Positions 8,401-48,014 of a stretch of 48,014 nt of DNA are shown in pieces; position 1 is the stretch's first letter, and every line of letters begins with the position of its first letter. This DNA comes from Candidatus Poribacteria bacterium (lineage in GTDB: Bacteria > Poribacteria > WGA-4E > WGA-3G). The translations under genes and the position numbers were made by a program. Where the stretch lies: NCBI GenBank assembly GCA_026702755.1, contig JAPPBX010000079.1, forward strand, positions 1-48,014, read 5' to 3'. The notes beneath the pieces were generated by a model. That model was not told the DNA's origin and did no database searches. It saw only the letters and a list, made by a program, of their open reading frames with translations.

Positions 8401-9051
8401 TCCTCCAGGGCTATCGCGCTGGATATATTAGCAGGCAAGATGTACTGGATTAATAATCATACCAGCAAGATTCAGCGGTCCAACCTTGATGGTTCTCAGA
8501 TTGAAGATTTGGTGAGTGCCCCGAATATGGAAACTCATTTTAACCTTTCACTTGATGTATCAGATGGCAAAATGTACTGGGGTAGTACTCACATCGTTTT
8601 GCGTGCCAATTTGGATGGTACTGAGGCTGAAATTCTATACGAAGTTGCTGATCCGCTCGATAACATCATTGGCGATATCGTTTTCGCTGCTCTACCAGGG
8701 AATATGACGCACGCTGCGCCGTCAACAGCACACAGAATATTAACAGCTATCCATCCAAAAGAAACGTTCCTGCTGCCAAACTACCCGAACCCTTTCAACC
8801 CAGAGACATGGATACCTTATCAGTTGTCAGAGTCTACGGATGTCACCCTGTCGATCTATTCTGTGGATGGGAACTTGGTTCGGACGCTGGACTTAGGGCA
8901 TCAGGCTGCAGGTATCTACCAAAGTAAAAGCCGTGCAGCGTATTGGGATGGTCGCAACCAGTTCGGTGAACCCGTGGCGAGTGGTCTTTATTTTTATACC
9001 TTGATTGCCGGTGATTTCACCGCCACGCGAAAGATGTTAATAAGGAAGTAA
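5491..9051 (+). CDS. Giant secreted multidomain protein with YWTD repeats and sorting domain
   Basis: I chose ATG 5491 because AAGGAG lies 9 bases upstream; a longer frame from 5440 lacks such a site. The 1186-residue product has a signal segment encoded by long T-runs. The first 350 residues are unassigned. A Calx-beta-like unit (about 353-440), two cadherin-like Ig modules (about 460-650, second begins NRPPMAVDPIPDQTL), a CARDB-like module (about 664-775), a run of YWTD/LDL-receptor-like repeats (about 785-1070; MYWTE, SNLDGS recurring) and the PNYPNPFNPETW sorting domain (about 1091-1186) follow. It is probably a surface adhesion or carbohydrate/protein-binding protein with eukaryote-like repeats. 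Confidence 0.85.
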   Translation: MPLFFLISQGCKVTVKTAFGIMILFFFFFTLAGPVDAFQTVLVRTTDGNVYQIRFLNNNPLNSYQRGNFIDDFSIYNQTGDVELCPGPDDPVVWELYTAARVLAKTRRSTPVYNTDTLAEALAQAVVDQELLPVTAAEKLVVGEIVGHITSEIQSHTFLKSLRIIPKSGPIAFIALPANLIAKIGKTEIRMRKLLYAFWIASTHANTAIVLQKVANQEAKKLWDAINAGNVVDILGGDLDVDMESGEVSGGMSIDGPLRLRLMAGVYQENAERAAELGTDLESDNAWHSWLLGFTGIGGILELIAAPFDAHRLKGALEELETSSGERLADKIEENIEDLYESAAFQLNWHGFCSPDLRLGASYFDVYEGHDLIYTLALDSPPDGVAMITISSDNPDATVSPAMLTFTASDWYKPKTVRLLTIEDADTVNERVYLTHTATGYGEILPQGTSFLIIDRKGNEAPKLVKTIDSLILSLGDELRLDIADYFQDPEGGELRYSHSVMGQNFDVLRVQRDAVGSWITIRPQKVGSTRLHIWSIDPAGLKTGLAFPVTVTDPQNRPPMAVDPIPDQTLRVDDPATPLDLSTYFLDPNGKTLTYTTELSNPGPVLPQVIGSELTISAWNVGSTEVTVKATNTNDLFITQTFTVTVTAEDTGDPSPEPVTQSFDLAIESLIISKDILAPDEPFTLSIEIYNKGPGDSPGPALSYYHSSIQGLAIGDRPQLQGTVLLDPLKAGERITKIIPLKAPSTPRTYYYGAWLAANYGDTDIYNDVATEVGVIVSDTVNARVQLIYWTEDSKIYRSKLDGTQRKVILVRKGMRLGRLALDVLGGKMYWTEFPISGGSTTLKCSNLDGSGIENVVVNIGALTDLFLDTSNSMVYWAVIVGRFEGNKIRRSNLDGSQVEDLVTNFNLGSIGQFELLESFAVDVSGSKMYWTEAAYKIRANNTIQIIAAGKIRRSNLDGSQVENLVTGLSSRAIALDILAGKMYWINNHTSKIQRSNLDGSQIEDLVSAPNMETHFNLSLDVSDGKMYWGSTHIVLRANLDGTEAEILYEVADPLDNIIGDIVFAALPGNMTHAAPSTAHRILTAIHPKETFLLPNYPNPFNPETWIPYQLSESTDVTLSIYSVDGNLVRTLDLGHQAAGIYQSKSRAAYWDGRNQFGEPVASGLYFYTLIAGDFTATRKMLIRK

Positions 9052-40142: not shown

Positions 40143-41015
40143 TTACTCGTCCCCAGTGGAATTCACGAGCAGTTTTCGTTCATTCAAGGGTTGTACCGGC
40201 CGGTTGTTATCATGAATAATCGCTTTAAACGCTGCGATTTGTGTTTCAGACATCTCGATCGGGGTTGTCAGCACAATCCATTTGACACCTTCTGAACAAG
40301 GCGGGGTTGTCAACGAACCGTCGTAACGATAGTAGTTCCAAAAACGCGAGGGGGCTTCGTCGGTTATCTGATCATTTGGTGAGAACATAAAACGAGGATC
40401 AACTATCAAGCTGCCGTCTTCAGTAACATTCTTAATATGTTGTGTTTCACCTGGGACTGCGGGTAAATGGGACCAGATTGGGTCAAATGCGAACTTGTGA
40501 CGACCGCTCTCAATTAGCAATCCAACGACTGCCAACGCGCCATCCTCACTTTTATGAACGAAGTGCGCCTCTATATCAAAGGGTTGACCGACCACCGTAT
40601 GTTCGCTCGGTGCATGGAAATGGAATTGGAGCAGCTGATACCGCGTGCCATCAACCTCAATCCAGTTCCCTTCTGGACACGAAACTTCAATTGTATGACC
40701 AGTGTTTCGGACATTCATACTTGTTGGGCGGTAGTCGTACGGAATAGGCGGAAGTTTGGTTGGCGTAGGGTTCACAAGATCAATTGGTGATTGGCATCTT
40801 CCCTCAGCGCAGAGGATGTATTCCGGACTGAGCTGCGCCCAAACGTCCGGTCCATTCTCCGCTTCGTAGCCCCAGGATACCGCCTCAGTATGCTGGACAA
40901 CCTGCTTTGCTTTTTTCTGATAGTTCATAGGAATATGTGTACAAGAGATGAGACTGTGCGTGATAAAGGTGAGTGCAAATAGCAGCTCAAGATTGAGTGC
41001 GGTAAATTTATTCAA
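40143..41015 (-). CDS. Alpha-carbonic anhydrase
   Basis: I suggest a TTG start at 41015 (GGGA upstream); an ATG at 41066 would overlap the previous gene more deeply. The TTG gives a membrane/lipoprotein-type leader (LLFALTFITHSLISCTH). The alpha-CA fold is clear: RCQSPIDLVNP, the zinc histidines in LLQFHFHAPSEH and EAHFVH, then YRYDGSLTTPPCSEGVKWIV. It hydrates CO2 in the periplasm. It overlaps the 100-residue gene by 8 bases and is probably cotranscribed. Confidence 0.9.
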   Translation of the reverse strand: MNKFTALNLELLFALTFITHSLISCTHIPMNYQKKAKQVVQHTEAVSWGYEAENGPDVWAQLSPEYILCAEGRCQSPIDLVNPTPTKLPPIPYDYRPTSMNVRNTGHTIEVSCPEGNWIEVDGTRYQLLQFHFHAPSEHTVVGQPFDIEAHFVHKSEDGALAVVGLLIESGRHKFAFDPIWSHLPAVPGETQHIKNVTEDGSLIVDPRFMFSPNDQITDEAPSRFWNYYRYDGSLTTPPCSEGVKWIVLTTPIEMSETQIAAFKAIIHDNNRPVQPLNERKLLVNSTGDE

Positions 41016-41310
41016 CTTTGTTCCCGTCCAAAGGCGTTTCTGACAACAATTGGGGTGGAAAAACAAGTGTGTCAGTTACGGATAATTGTTGATACGTTTT
41101 CAACACCTCTTGCAATTGATTGTAGAATTGCTCGCATTCTTCTTTCGTGCCGAGTAGTTCTATGCTGGGTGAATTTGACAGATTAATATGCAACTCGTAT
41201 GAACGATGTCTTCCTTTGATTATCTGAATCTGGTGTACATACTGAATATTCACCATCCCGCGATAGGAAGAATTATATTTCCCATCTTGGTTGATGATTT
41301 CAATAAACAT
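41008..41310 (-). CDS. Small hypothetical protein before carbonic anhydrase
   Basis: A 100-residue soluble product with AAAGGAG before the ATG. It reads like a small two-layer or PH-like domain (MFIEIINQDGKYNSSYRG, ELHINLSNSPSIELLG). The C-terminal 25 residues are variable and proline-rich. No family was recognised. The carbonic anhydrase start lies inside its end. Confidence 0.65.
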   Translation of the reverse strand: MFIEIINQDGKYNSSYRGMVNIQYVHQIQIIKGRHRSYELHINLSNSPSIELLGTKEECEQFYNQLQEVLKTYQQLSVTDTLVFPPQLLSETPLDGNKVE

Positions 41311-43583: not shown

Positions 43584-43683
43584 TTCTCACTCCTCTTGGA
43601 GAGGCTATACGAAAATAAAGGAAGCTGCCCGCCTGTCACAACTTAGACGTGCCGGCAGCTTTGTCCTCCTTTTGTTGTTCCGT
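43584..43683 (-). terminator. Candidate terminator after triple DUF5069 gene
   Basis: AAGCTGCC (43622-43629) and GGCAGCTT (43654-43661) form an 8-bp stem around a 24-base loop. On the minus strand T-rich sequence follows. Confidence 0.35.
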
Positions 43684-44967
43684 TTACAACGCGAAGGTCT
43701 TCTCATCGTCAAGAGCCATCAGCGCGAACCATGTATTAATGTCTGTACGCTCTGGCGCAATCTTGTTAATCATATTTGCCATTATCGCCTTATAGCGTTC
43801 ATCTGTGGGACCCATTTGGGTCATCCGTTCGTTGTAGGCTTCGATATCTGCTTCGCTTTTTGAATAATCTGCTTTCAGCCATGTCTCGACTTCTGCATCG
43901 GTTGGCAATGTCTTTAGTGCTTCAGCGAATTCTGCAGCAGAGATGCCAAGGAAAGCGAGCGTTGCCCGATCAATCCCTGAATCCTCGCCATAAAAATAAG
44001 CACCTAATGTGTTGCTGTTAAATGCTCTTCCCTTGTCAATCAACCGTGCGAGTTGAACCATCCCGTAGACATCTGTGTTGTAGGGGCTGCGCGGTGCGCG
44101 ACGTTGGAGGTCAACAATACCGAAACTCAGTTGATCGTCCACGTCCTGAAGTTCTACCCAGGTTGTAATATCTGTCCGGGTCGGATCTACTTCTTGGCAT
44201 CGTGCTTCAAACCGTTCCCGCGTCGTTTCATTGGGCCCGTAGTTTACCAACGTCTGGTTGAACGTCTCAATCTCGTCCTGTGATTTACCGCAGTTTTCCA
44301 GTACCCACGCACCGATTTCAAGGTCGTTTGGATTGTTGACTGCTGCCTCTTGGAAATCTGCAGCTGAAATACCGAGAAACGTTAGGATGCGTACATCTTG
44401 TCCAGAATTGTCGCCGTATACGTATTCACCGATTTTCCCGGCGCGTTCGGCACGTCCTTTATCTGCCATGCGCGCAACACCACAGATACCAGCGATGTCT
44501 CTCGCACGTGCGCTGCGTGGTGGAGCGGCGGTTAAGTCGACCTGCCAGAAGCTTCCCCAATCGTCAAGTTCCATGGACTGAAGCACCGTCGTAATATCGG
44601 TTCTACCGGGCGCAAAGCGAGCGAGTCGATCCTTCAATCGTTGTTTGTGTGCCTCCGTGTCTGGTAGTTGGGTGAGTGCAGCATCATTAAACTCGGCAAT
44701 TTCTGCGGCTGTTTTTCCGCTTGTTTCAAGGATCCAGTGTCCGAGTGCAGAATCATCATGTTCATCAACCACTTCTGCGAAAGCGTCGGCGGAAATTCCT
44801 AAAAACGTTAAGGCGCGCTGGTCCAAACCTGAGCTTTCACCGTAGATATAATCACCGATGGTTTCGGCGTTATGTGCGCGTGCCTTGTCTGTCATCCGTG
44901 CTACACCGACAATTCCAGCAATACCCAAGTTTGAAGGGCGACGTGGTGGTTGGCGTGTCAAATCCAT
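43684..44967 (-). CDS. Triple DUF5069 repeat protein
   Basis: A 427-residue soluble protein made of three tandem copies of a domain of about 140 residues that matches DUF5069. Each has an opening such as DLTRQPPRRPS or DLTAAPPRSARAR, an internal ARMTDKARA or ARMADKGRA, YGESSGLDQRALTFLGISA and a closing APGRTDITT or APERTDINTW. DUF5069 proteins normally have one copy. The function of the family is unknown. The gene is followed by a possible terminator. Confidence 0.8.
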   Translation of the reverse strand: MDLTRQPPRRPSNLGIAGIVGVARMTDKARAHNAETIGDYIYGESSGLDQRALTFLGISADAFAEVVDEHDDSALGHWILETSGKTAAEIAEFNDAALTQLPDTEAHKQRLKDRLARFAPGRTDITTVLQSMELDDWGSFWQVDLTAAPPRSARARDIAGICGVARMADKGRAERAGKIGEYVYGDNSGQDVRILTFLGISAADFQEAAVNNPNDLEIGAWVLENCGKSQDEIETFNQTLVNYGPNETTRERFEARCQEVDPTRTDITTWVELQDVDDQLSFGIVDLQRRAPRSPYNTDVYGMVQLARLIDKGRAFNSNTLGAYFYGEDSGIDRATLAFLGISAAEFAEALKTLPTDAEVETWLKADYSKSEADIEAYNERMTQMGPTDERYKAIMANMINKIAPERTDINTWFALMALDDEKTFAL

Positions 44968-45036: not shown

Positions 45037-45099
45037 CGATATTTTATCATATTTAAAGAGAGTGTCAAGCGAAAAAGCACACCGATCCCTTAATTTGCC

Positions 45100-45128
45100 T
45101 TGACATTTTTCATGGAAAATGCTATATT
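45100..45128 (+). promoter_or_regulatory. Strong sigma70-type promoter for cupin gene
   Basis: A perfect TTGACA, 17-bp spacer and TATATT. The ribosome-binding site GGAGG (45145-45149) is 6 bases before the ATG. Confidence 0.8.
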
Positions 45129-45155: not shown

Positions 45156-45788
45156 ATGGGATTTCCTGTTTACGATTACCGCACGGATATACGGAATGTG
45201 TTGGTAACACCGCAAATTCGCTCACGCTTTTTAAAGATGGAACCTGGGCAGAGTGCCCAACTTCATAGCCATGACTTGGGGCATGAAATTTTCCTGATTC
45301 TGGAAGGGCGCGTCGAATTTGAAATTGAGGGTGAAACTGAAGAGTTAGGACCGGGACAAATGTGCGTCGCTCTGGCGGATCAGCCCCATACGGTGCGCGT
45401 TCTTGGTGATGAACCGATGACGATGTATCTCTCTGTTACACCGCATATTCACCCGACGCATACACCGCGTACAGAGGATGGGGAACGGTTACCACACAAT
45501 TTTTCGCCACCTCGCGCTTACGATGTTGATCCCGATGTGCAGGTATCGGTCGCGGAACTCGTTGCTCGGCAGATACACGCAGCACAATTGCTTGAAGAAT
45601 TGACGCAAACATGCGCAGCAGTCCAACAAGAGATGGGCAATCAACTCAAGACTGCTCTCGCCGAAGGGGATGAGGATGCTGCTACCGCAGCGCGCAAAGC
45701 CATGTGGGAGTCGATTTATCCGGTTTACAAGGCTGTTTTTGAGTTAGCTGAGGTTTGGAATACGCTTGCGCCGCGCGCAAGTCAATAA
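45156..45788 (+). CDS. Cupin-domain protein
   Basis: A 210-residue protein. The first 110 residues form a cupin barrel: PGQSAQLHSHDLGHEIFLIL (two metal histidines and a glutamate) and GPGQMCVALADQPHTVR (third histidine). The C-terminal 90 residues are helical (VAELVARQIHAAQLLEELTQ) and of unknown role. No family-specific substrate is visible. It has a strong promoter of its own and no operon partner. Confidence 0.85.
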   Translation: MGFPVYDYRTDIRNVLVTPQIRSRFLKMEPGQSAQLHSHDLGHEIFLILEGRVEFEIEGETEELGPGQMCVALADQPHTVRVLGDEPMTMYLSVTPHIHPTHTPRTEDGERLPHNFSPPRAYDVDPDVQVSVAELVARQIHAAQLLEELTQTCAAVQQEMGNQLKTALAEGDEDAATAARKAMWESIYPVYKAVFELAEVWNTLAPRASQ

Positions 45789-46183
45789 TCTGTTTTTAGC
45801 AGGACTTACGTAAACCTGTTAGCTGCGCTTTACAAGTACACCTAACGACGAAAGTTTTACGGGCGAGTCGCGTAACTCCAAATTAATTTGTTTTGTTTCA
45901 GGGTTTATGGTATACTTAAAAATTAACAAAGGATAGTTTCTCCTGCATTTGCAAAAAAAATTGTTAATTTAAACTGAATTTGATTTGACAACGTTTTAAC
46001 ATTAGGATAAACTTACTTTTAAGAACCTCGTTTAAACGAACCGCCTTTGCGCGTCTGACGGAAGCACACGGGTATCAAGGCGATCCTATATTTTGCGGTA
46101 CGTCTGTTCTCAAACGAGAATCTACATCTGTACCGAAAGGTAGAGAAAACGTCACAATATCAATGAATTATAAGGAGTGTCTT
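45789..46183 (+). promoter_or_regulatory. Intergenic region with candidate promoter
   Basis: TTGACA (45985-45990), a 17-bp spacer and TAAACT may drive the cohesin-spondin gene, with a long leader of about 165 bases. A reversed GTAAGTCCT copy lies near 45800. No gene is visible. Confidence 0.45.
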
Positions 46184-48014
46184 ATGAAAGACCAGCTTTT
46201 TAATAGGAAAGTCCTTTTTTCCTTATTAGCTGTTGTAATGTGTTTGGGATTTACAGCCATGAGTTACGGCGCAGCCGTTGTCTCTGTGGACCCCGCTGAA
46301 GTAGAATCTCCAGCGGCTGGGGAACAACTCATGGTGAATATTAATGTAACGGGTGGTGCAGGGGTCGTCGGTTACCAAGCAACCGTAAACTTCGATGCGA
46401 CTGCGCTCGAATATGTTTCTGCTGCAAACGCCGATTACCTGCCTGCAGGCGCGTTTCCAGTTATAAGACCTGGTGATGGCAGTGTATTGGTTGGTGCTGG
46501 TGGAGCAACAGCAGCCGCAGCCGCCGATGGCACGCTCGCTACGGTAACGTTTAAAGTCATTGAAGCGAAAGCGTCCACTATTAGTTTAACAGGTGTTGTT
46601 CTCTCTGATGCCGCTGCCGCTGAATTAGAAGTCACAACTATGGATGGCATGGTAACTGCTCCCGCTGCAGATGCCGCAGCCGCTGATGATACCGAAGCGG
46701 ATGATACTGAGGCTGATGCCGCAGCCGCTGATGATACCGAAGCGGATGATACTGAGGCTGATGACGCAGCCGCTGATGATACCGAGGCTGAGGCTGATGA
46801 TGCTGAGGCTGATGACGCAGCCGCTGATGATGCTGAGGCTGATGACGCAGCCGCTGATGACGCAGTTGCCGATGACGCAGCTGAAGATGCGCCTGCTGAA
46901 GAACCAGCCCCTGAACCTGTCAGCCAGATGTTCGAGATTACACTCACGAACCTCACTGAGGGTGAACACGGTGTCAGTGGACAAACGTTCTCACCTGCGA
47001 TCTTTGTAGCACATGCCGCCGGTGTTAAACTCGCTGAAGTCGGTCAACCCGCGAATGAAGCGATCGTTGCAATGGCTGAGGGTGGAGATATTTCAGGACT
47101 CGTCGCACTTGCACAAGCTGCTGGCGCGAACGTCGCGATCGCTATGAATGCGGATGGATCGCGCAGATATACGATGCCGGGGCAATCTACGACTGTTACC
47201 GTAACTGCTGATAAAACGAATTCTTCGCTCTCTGTCGGCTCAATGTTGGTCTCAACGAACGATGCGTTCATCGCCGCTATTGACGTACCCCTCTTTGATG
47301 AAGCCGGTATGCCTGTGTCTACGACGATCGACTTAATGGCTTATGACGCTGGTAGTGAAGATAACACGGAGATGGCTTCTGATATTCCGGGACCGCTCGG
47401 TTTAGACGCTGAGATTGATCCGCCAGGCAGTAACGCACGCGTTCCGACCGAAGGTGGTGTGATTGCGCCACACGAAGGGATTCAAGGTGTTGGTGATGTG
47501 GGTGAAGCGTTTGCTTGGGAAGAACCGACAGCGATGTTGACGATTGCCCCTGTTGAAGCACCGCCGGAACCAGAACCAGAACCAGAACCGATAGTTCCTG
47601 GTTTCGATGTCACACTTGGACCCGGCTTGAACATGATTTCCATTCCATTGATGCCAGCAGAACCATATACAGCGAAATCTTTAGCAGAGATGCTCGGTGC
47701 GACAGTTGTCATCCGCTTGGATGCTGCGACGCAGAATTTCGTTGGTTACACGGTTGCTGACGAAGGTTATGGCTTCGGTATTGATGGTGGTCAAGGTTAT
47801 ATCGTAAATACGCCAGCCGGAGCGATGGTGAAGTTCACGGGTGATGCGTGGGACAACCAACCTGAACCGCCGCCACCGCCAGAAGAACCTGCTCCTGAGG
47901 AAAAAGCACCGGCCGATGACGTAGCCGCTGAAGATGCACCTGATGACGATGCCGCAGCTGATGACGCAGCCGCAGACGATGCCGCTGCCGACGCAGGCGA
48001 AGCTGATGACGCAG
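46184..48014 (+). CDS. Secreted cohesin-spondin protein, partial at 3' end
   Basis: ATG with AAGGAG 6 bases upstream; the frame stays open to the window end, giving at least 610 residues. It has a signal peptide (cleavage near MSYGA). Residues about 27-155 are a cohesin-like domain (GYQATVNFDATALEYVS). Residues about 161-240 are an Asp/Ala/Glu-rich repeat. Residues about 248-455 are a spondin-like domain (FEITLTNLTEGEHGVSGQ, IAPHEGIQGVGDV). A module with LGPGLNMISIPL follows from about 473, then another acidic repeat. It is probably secreted and calcium-binding; it reads as an extracellular matrix-like protein. Confidence 0.85.
   Translation, partial: MKDQLFNRKVLFSLLAVVMCLGFTAMSYGAAVVSVDPAEVESPAAGEQLMVNINVTGGAGVVGYQATVNFDATALEYVSAANADYLPAGAFPVIRPGDGSVLVGAGGATAAAAADGTLATVTFKVIEAKASTISLTGVVLSDAAAAELEVTTMDGMVTAPAADAAAADDTEADDTEADAAAADDTEADDTEADDAAADDTEAEADDAEADDAAADDAEADDAAADDAVADDAAEDAPAEEPAPEPVSQMFEITLTNLTEGEHGVSGQTFSPAIFVAHAAGVKLAEVGQPANEAIVAMAEGGDISGLVALAQAAGANVAIAMNADGSRRYTMPGQSTTVTVTADKTNSSLSVGSMLVSTNDAFIAAIDVPLFDEAGMPVSTTIDLMAYDAGSEDNTEMASDIPGPLGLDAEIDPPGSNARVPTEGGVIAPHEGIQGVGDVGEAFAWEEPTAMLTIAPVEAPPEPEPEPEPIVPGFDVTLGPGLNMISIPLMPAEPYTAKSLAEMLGATVVIRLDAATQNFVGYTVADEGYGFGIDGGQGYIVNTPAGAMVKFTGDAWDNQPEPPPPPEEPAPEEKAPADDVAAEDAPDDDAAADDAAADDAAADAGEADDA
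46666..46895 (+). repeat. Low-complexity Asp/Ala/Glu-coding repeat
   Basis: About 230 bp of repeated GATGATACCGAAGC- and GATGACGCAGCCGC-type units encode an acidic linker in the cohesin-spondin gene. A similar block begins near 47925 at the window end. Long opposite-strand open frames here are artefacts of the composition. Confidence 0.7.

What the first reader, a model, noticed from the sequence alone, without database searches (positions are those of the whole stretch)
43684..44967. Triple tandem DUF5069 protein
DUF5069 is normally a single-domain family of unknown function. Here three divergent copies are fused, each keeping the FLGISA block.
Basis: partly seen in the sequence, partly recalled or inferred. 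Interest (0 to 1): 0.5.

Follow-up and report, generated by a model that had tools for sequence, protein, structure and literature searches.

The report
Ancient triple-domain relative of a selenoprotein
A bacterium whose close relatives are Poribacteria, a phylum known from marine sponges, makes a conserved protein built from three copies of a domain of unknown function; a short relative of it in the same genome appears to carry selenocysteine, which suggests that the family does redox chemistry and that the triple protein has given up the key residue.

Summary
In detail: window 43684-44967 (-) encodes one 427-aa protein with three DUF5069 (PF16798) domains (285.8 bits, cut-off 27). It is not a local oddity: full-length triples occur in 59 of 84 genomes of the window's phylum (named relatives: Candidatus Poribacteria) and 33 of 64 of a second, unnamed phylum. 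Each domain position forms its own lineage across both, and all three domains are under purifying selection.

Domains 1 and 3 have Ser (62 of 62 rows each) where most single-copy DUF5069 rows have Cys (15 of 22). Domain 2 keeps Cys in some lineages but has Ser in the window's. Another gene of the same genome bears on that Cys: an 81-aa DUF5069 protein with an in-frame TGA exactly at that codon. In 108 of 108 loci read the TGA sits there, 107 with the same hairpin loop; 13 of 13 no-stop relatives have Cys. selB, tRNA-Sec and selD are present. It looks like a selenoprotein family, and I found no description of it in the papers searched.

Most likely the triple is a non-redox derivative of a thiol/selenol family. 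That role is inferred, not shown.

The parts
43684..44967 (-). Triple-DUF5069 protein, 427 aa
44560..44949 (-). DUF5069 domain 1 (88.2 bits)
44131..44523 (-). DUF5069 domain 2 (101.9 bits)
43702..44100 (-). DUF5069 domain 3 (104.4 bits)
44821..44841 (-). Domain 1 loop GESSGLD: Ser at the position of the Cys of most single-copy DUF5069 rows
44395..44415 (-). Domain 2 loop GDNSGQD: Ser here, Cys (NCPID, DCPID or GCPLD) in some other lineages
43969..43989 (-). Domain 3 loop GEDSGID: Ser at the Cys position
45041..45068 (-). Sigma-70-like site (11 of 12 consensus bases) ahead of the triple gene; a divergent 11-of-12 site at 45100-45128 (+) faces the cupin gene
   Evidence: consensus match only; 10 sites found in the region, 3.9 expected
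43617..43669 (-). Strong hairpin followed by a U-rich tail just downstream of the gene, possibly a terminator (-27.7 kcal/mol, z -4.06)
   Evidence: the pattern scan did not list it

Best explanation
The gene encodes a protein (no signal peptide apparent by eye) of three tandem DUF5069 domains, each an all-helical unit like the solved single-domain protein 3omd. Shown here: (1) the triple architecture is conserved in two phyla, with each domain position its own lineage; (2) the position that is Cys in most single-copy rows, Sec or Cys in a short paralogous family, and Cys in domain 2 of some triples and doubles, is Ser in all three domains of the window's protein; (3) the other most conserved residues (Arg of the PR motif and Arg, Asp, Lys of RxxDK) are kept in every Ser-type domain examined; (4) all three domains are under purifying selection. 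Inferred: the activity of the Cys/Sec members is thiol/selenol chemistry on a residue at the N-terminus of helix 2, and the conserved residues form its pocket. The triple kept these but not the redox residue, so it works as a multi-site binding or regulatory (pseudo-enzyme) protein rather than as a redox enzyme. The substrate is unknown.
For: Triple over at least 400 of 428 positions in 59 of 84 genomes of the own phylum (58 uninterrupted, G070 interrupted) and three matches in one frame in 33 of 64 of the second (32 from the rows listed, G137). Tree of 94 rows, SH-aLRT: T1 plus first domains of doubles one clade (99), T2 plus second domains plus the standalone D2-like gene (94), T3 one side of a branch (78). 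Residue at the Cys column, distinct sequences: T1 62 of 62 Ser, T3 62 of 62 Ser, T2 54 Ser, 7 Cys, 1 Ala; doubles first domain 12 of 12 Ser, second domain 7 Cys, 5 Ser; single-copy 15 of 22 Cys, 3omd included. Arg (PR), Arg, Asp and Lys present in 196 of 196 Ser rows and 68 of 68 Cys/Sec rows; a two-residue insertion before the Ser in 196 of 196, never complete in the Cys/Sec rows. Median dN/dS 0.082, 0.088, 0.084. Model mean pLDDT 86; the only solid structural match is 3omd, Z 21.2, rmsd 1.9 over 142 residues. The helix starts at the residue after the Ser or Cys (residues 47, 189, 331; 43). The redox meaning rests on the Sec paralogue: TGA at the Cys codon in 108 of 108 loci, loop TGGA at the same offset in 107; Cys in 13 of 13 no-stop relatives; covariation score 0.214 against 0.056, reached by 0 of 500 shuffles; selB, tRNA-Sec, selD.
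Against: No biochemical data, and no paper on DUF5069 in the library searched. Cys is not universal in the family: 7 of 22 single-copy rows lack it, and four of these (L091, L092, L094, L095) are among the highest Pfam scores seen, 149-156 bits, so the family's function may not rest on it. The Sec protein is short and covers only model positions 4-75 of 133, so its chemistry need not be that of full-length members. That the conserved residues form one pocket was not tested on coordinates. The conserved Tyr is F or H in 32 of 196 Ser rows. Whether domain 2 lost Cys or regained it is not resolved, and transfer of the triple between the two phyla is not excluded. Inter-domain arrangement is uncertain (pTM 0.62).
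Confidence: 0.5

Rival explanations
1. The Ser of the YGxxSGxD loops is itself a nucleophile: the triple is an active enzyme with three Ser-based sites, a chemistry switch rather than a loss.
For: The loop is conserved, not eroded: S46, G47 and D49 of domain 1 are invariant in the 30-row alignment; Arg, Arg, Asp and Lys are kept in 196 of 196 Ser rows; dN/dS about 0.08.
Against: A two-residue insertion comes with the Ser in 196 of 196 rows, which should move the side chain relative to the Cys-type site; the fold search gave no hydrolase or transferase match, though a missing match excludes nothing.
Confidence: 0.2
2. DUF5069 is a structural or regulatory protein-interaction domain; the triple is a multivalent scaffold and the Cys/Sec is a structural or metal-binding residue.
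For: Only helices and no enzyme fold match; Cys absent in 7 of 22 single-copy rows, some of them the best Pfam scores; gene neighbours are not conserved beyond close relatives.
Against: TGA at the position in 107 genomes, exchanged for Cys in all 13 no-stop relatives, is typical of catalytic redox positions (that rule is general knowledge, not from a call); no His or second Cys is invariant among the 20 Sec proteins aligned.
Confidence: 0.22
3. The triple takes part in a local pathway with its neighbours (cupin, beta-helix protein, PhyH-type oxygenase, carbonic anhydrase).
For: Neighbours recur: beta-helix in 29, PhyH in 28, carbonic anhydrase in 25 and cupin in 24 of 42 loci, a number of which are cut by contig ends.
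Against: None of the 20 loci fetched from more distant genomes keeps these neighbours; subgroups of the second phylum have other neighbours of their own. Promoter-like and hairpin signals flank the gene.
Confidence: 0.05

Closest known systems
DUF5069 single-domain protein 3omd (Leptospirillum rubarum, titled 'unknown function')
   Same: Same fold (Z 21.2, rmsd 1.9 over 142 residues) and 33% identity to domain 3
   Different: One domain, with Cys in YNCPLD; the window protein has three domains and Ser in YGxxSGxD
Two-domain and Cys-bearing three-domain DUF5069 proteins of the two phyla studied here
   Same: Domain positions group together in the tree
   Different: Some keep Cys in domain 2 (14 rows: 7 of triples, 7 of doubles); the window's lineage does not
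Short Sec/Cys DUF5069 protein (81 aa in the own genome, G000 contig 36, match at 8601-8840)
   Same: Pfam DUF5069 hit, 52.3 bits, positions 4-75 of 133; same Arg, RxxDK, Tyr and Asp residues
   Different: N-terminal half only, Sec or Cys instead of Ser, SECIS-like hairpin downstream in the TGA form
Catalogued prokaryotic selenoprotein families (2026 review PMC13188914, passages read)
   Same: In-frame TGA at a Cys position, SECIS-like hairpin immediately downstream, Sec machinery in the genome
   Different: The DUF families in the passages shown are DUF3179, DUF166, DUF1573, DUF1858, DUF2284, DUF523 and DUF466, not DUF5069. The nameless 'hypothetical proteins' listed there were not compared one by one; the NCBIfam library as a whole gave no match

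Membership tests
DUF5069 (PF16798) | Score above Pfam's curated cut-off (27 bits) | tested here: met
   285.8 bits for the protein; 104.4, 101.9, 88.2 for the three domains
DUF5069 (PF16798) | Fold of the solved member 3omd | tested here: met
   AlphaFold model (domain 3, residues 280-424) against 3omd: Z 21.2, rmsd 1.9, 142 residues; domains 1 and 2 have a similar order of helices but were not aligned apart
Cys/Sec (thiol-type) subgroup of DUF5069 | Cys or Sec in the YxCPxD motif | tested here: not met
   Ser in all three domains of the window protein; so it is not filed in this subgroup
Bacterial selenoprotein (claimed for the short paralogue, not for the triple) | In-frame TGA at a position that is Cys in homologues | tested here: met
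   108 of 108 TGA loci; 13 of 13 no-stop relatives have Cys; 15 of 22 single-copy rows have Cys
Bacterial selenoprotein (claimed for the short paralogue, not for the triple) | SECIS-like hairpin just downstream of the TGA | tested here: met
   Inner five stem pairs complete in 106 of 108, loop TGGA in 107 of 108. On 20 sequences covariation score reached by 0 of 500 shuffles, number of pairs with two-sided change by 6 of 500. Part of the conservation may come from the encoded FLEE; no SECIS program was run
Bacterial selenoprotein (claimed for the short paralogue, not for the triple) | Sec machinery in the genome | tested here: met
   selB, tRNA-Sec with anticodon TCA, selD; selA was not searched
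Bacterial selenoprotein (claimed for the short paralogue, not for the triple) | Selenium incorporation shown by experiment | not testable with these tools
   needs 75Se labelling or mass spectrometry
Redox enzyme | Turnover dependent on Cys/Sec | not testable with these tools

The most novel reading that the evidence does not exclude
DUF5069 contains an undescribed kind of thiol/selenol enzyme with a fold unlike thioredoxin. One branch is a new selenoprotein found in most genomes of Poribacteria and in over half of those of a second phylum. The triple protein of the window is an ancient three-domain derivative, in which flanking Ser-type domains enclosed one Cys domain (Ser-Cys-Ser) and the middle Cys was then lost, turning an enzyme into a three-site binding or regulatory protein that still exists beside the selenoprotein.
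Probability: 0.38. Interest if true: 0.8.

Novelty: new variant of a known kind. Interest (0 to 1): 0.58.

Why it matters
A domain of unknown function gains a testable active-site residue and a likely chemistry. One paper reports SelA and SelB co-occurring in the majority of sponge-symbiont bins but missing in most related references (PMC5649159, one passage read); the short DUF5069 protein, present with TGA in 71 of 84 genomes of the phylum, is a candidate for part of what that machinery serves. The triple gives a natural series Sec - Cys - Ser on one fold, including Ser-Cys-Ser and Ser-Ser-Ser arrangements, for asking how a redox domain becomes a non-redox one.

Tried and rejected
Plasmids: no relative by tblastn in PLSDB. 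Viral contigs: 27 stretches matched a pattern, none confirmed. NCBIfam: no match for the triple at E up to 1 or for the short protein at E up to 10. The weak Pfam hit to SIP (E 0.35, below cut-off) was discarded as noise. Foldseek and VIA-align gave no convincing match besides 3omd; the model of the short protein also matched only 3omd, E 0.045. Gene neighbourhood as a guide to function was dropped. Ca-binding by the YGEDSGxD loop was considered and rejected because the acidic position is K, R or N in some rows. TGA as Trp was rejected: the 13 no-stop relatives have Cys, none Trp. In those 13 the TGGA loop is gone in 12, but the stem is only weakened: inner five pairs complete in 1 of 13 against 106 of 108, and some still fold well (mean -6.2 kcal/mol, range 0 to -11.2, against -8.2). 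selB with the TGA gene, counted by hand: both 102, TGA without selB 5, selB without TGA 17, neither 24 of 148 genomes (Fisher p 3e-12); genomes are not independent, so the p value is only indicative. The 5 exceptions are G024, G029, G032, G060 (73-83% complete) and G130 (completeness not told). Of the 13 genomes with the Cys form, 11 keep selB (not G010 and G144), so the Cys form does not simply follow loss of the machinery. Domain 2: loss or regain of Cys is not resolved. Rows dropped: loci L118-L125 (selB hits); exact duplicates and two fragment rows (third match in L114 and L115). 271 domain rows plus 3omd were used; 93 of them, after thinning at 82% identity, plus 3omd. The 20 TGA loci were chosen because search rows showed a TGA; fetched the rest, so one search covers the 107 genomes whose strong rows show one (108 loci; G058 has two; G047 is partial; G022 and G077 were read as G087 and G086, taken to be the same genomes from matching contigs and coordinates). 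dN/dS used only pairs with dS between 0.1 and 1.2: 79, 78 and 59 of 435.

Full report
What is there. Window 43684-44967 on the minus strand holds one ORF of 427 aa. Pfam gives DUF5069 (PF16798) at 285.8 bits with three stretches, and a separate search places the three domains at 44560-44949, 44131-44523 and 43702-44100 with 88.2, 101.9 and 104.4 bits against a cut-off of 27. The copies share 40-46% identity, and each has FLGISA (residues 55, 197, 339).

Whose gene it is. Of 41 related loci found in named genomes, 40 carry the name Poribacteria; the exception, L074, is an unclassified bacterium. The window's genome G000 is held as 5.8 Mb in 126 contigs.

How common. With a profile of 30 triples, 59 of 84 genomes of the phylum have a match over at least 400 of 428 positions, one of them (G070) interrupted. 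Through L074 a second phylum of 64 genomes was reached: 32 have three matches in one open frame in the rows listed, and G137 was added. Two-domain proteins occur in at least 7 genomes of the first (G005, G007, G008, G020-G023) and 11 of the second phylum (G115-G125). One search did not list all rows, so its counts are lower bounds. All 14 control genomes lacked the family. Other phyla were not sampled.

History. In a tree of 94 domain rows (quick IQ-TREE, 143 columns, SH-aLRT support) first domains of triples and doubles form one clade (99), second domains with the standalone D2-like gene another (94), and third domains lie on one side of a branch (78). The triplication is therefore older than the split of the two phyla, unless the gene was passed between them, and the doubles look like losses of domain 3. 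Each domain is under purifying selection: median dN/dS 0.082, 0.088 and 0.084 over 79, 78 and 59 of 435 pairs.

The key position. Of 22 single-copy rows, 15 have Cys there, including 3omd (YNCPLD); 7 do not, and four of those are among the best Pfam scores seen. Domains 1 and 3 have Ser in 62 of 62 distinct sequences each. Domain 2 has Ser in 54, Cys in 7 and Ala in 1 of 62; second domains of doubles have Cys in 7 and Ser in 5 of 12, first domains Ser in 12 of 12. In 196 of 196 Ser rows a two-residue insertion precedes the Ser (YGxxSGxD), and Arg (PR), Arg, Asp and Lys (RxxDK) are present in 196 of 196 Ser rows and 68 of 68 Cys/Sec rows; the Tyr is F or H in 32 Ser rows. The window protein is Ser-Ser-Ser. 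In the models the helix begins at the residue after this Ser or Cys.

What the position means. The own genome has two further DUF5069 genes: a D2-like 146-aa protein with Ser (L004, Pfam 64.7 bits), and an 81-aa protein on contig 36 with an in-frame TGA exactly at the Cys codon, GEYIYP-U-PQDKMF, behind a good ribosome-binding site. The TGA form occurs in 71 of 84 genomes of the own phylum and 36 of 64 of the second; 6 and 7 genomes have a form without stop. All 107 TGA genomes were read (108 loci): TGA at the same codon in 108 of 108; inner five pairs of a hairpin that starts 15 nt downstream complete in 106; loop TGGA in 107. All 13 no-stop relatives have Cys (10 TGC, 3 TGT); the TGGA loop is absent in 12 of them, while the stem is weakened rather than gone. 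On 20 of the TGA sequences the stem has three pairs with changes on both sides; the covariation score, 0.214 against a mean of 0.056, was reached by 0 of 500 shuffles, the number of such pairs by 6 of 500. The own genome has selB, tRNA-Sec with anticodon TCA beside it, and selD with one in-frame TGA whose place I did not examine. selA was not searched. selB is found in 102 of the 107 TGA genomes and in 17 of the 41 others.

Function. That a position is Sec in some members and Cys in others marks it, by general experience with selenoproteins, as a catalytic redox residue; this step is inference. It follows that the Cys/Sec members of DUF5069 are probably thiol/selenol enzymes, and that the triple, Ser in all three domains but otherwise conserved, is a non-redox derivative. 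Whether it binds the old substrate at three sites, regulates, or uses Ser chemistry cannot be told from sequence. The fold gives no further hint: the only solid match is 3omd, titled a protein of unknown function. Gene neighbours (cupin, beta-helix, PhyH, carbonic anhydrase) recur among close relatives but not in 20 loci from more distant genomes. A promoter-like site and a strong hairpin with a U-rich tail suggest that the gene may be its own transcription unit; the terminator scan itself did not list that hairpin.

Known or not. No paper in the library held (PubMed Central, open licences) contains DUF5069 or PF16798; none holds both Poribacteria and selenoprotein, and two hold Poribacteria and selenocysteine, of which I read one passage of one. 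Of a 2026 review of the prokaryotic selenoproteome I saw passages; the DUF families named there do not include DUF5069. Passages of a 2025 prediction paper and a 2022 review did not name it either. In the 2014 Poribacteria single-cell genome paper a word search found no selen-, DUF or UGA. NCBIfam release 20.0 gave no match for either protein. Subscription papers and supplements were not searched, so a description elsewhere is possible.

Verdict. The finding is real. The triple is an architecture variant of a known but uncharacterised family, conserved and under selection. The larger result is that the family very probably includes a selenoprotein, which turns the difference between Cys/Sec and Ser members into a testable statement about function.

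Noticed in passing
L126 4002-4244 (G000 contig 36): Probable selenoprotein: 81-aa DUF5069 protein with TGA at the Cys codon and a SECIS-like hairpin; TGA form read in 107 genomes of two phyla.
   Followed up: yes
L004 1450-1887 (G000 contig 110: 50940-51269): Standalone DUF5069 gene that groups with domain 2 of the triples, on a long branch; similar short genes appear in many genomes of the genus and family.
   Followed up: partly
L194 (G000 contig 96: 159939-160862): selD of the same genome has one in-frame TGA, so it may be a selenoprotein too; the position was not examined.
   Followed up: no
L072 5998-6900: A close relative whose third DUF5069 domain is mostly missing: only its beginning and a few last residues remain before the beta-helix gene.
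   Followed up: partly
window 45156-45788: Divergent cupin gene with an 11-of-12 promoter-like site of its own.
   Followed up: no
window 40143-41066: Alpha-type (eukaryotic-type) carbonic anhydrase, Pfam E 1.3e-40, in 25 of 42 related loci.
   Followed up: no
window 46163-48013: Protein with long Asp/Glu/Ala-rich repeats, running off the window.
   Followed up: no
L091, L092, L094, L095, L097, L100: A divergent single-copy DUF5069 branch without the Cys (KDYNRGFGLD or similar), some with very high Pfam scores.
   Followed up: no
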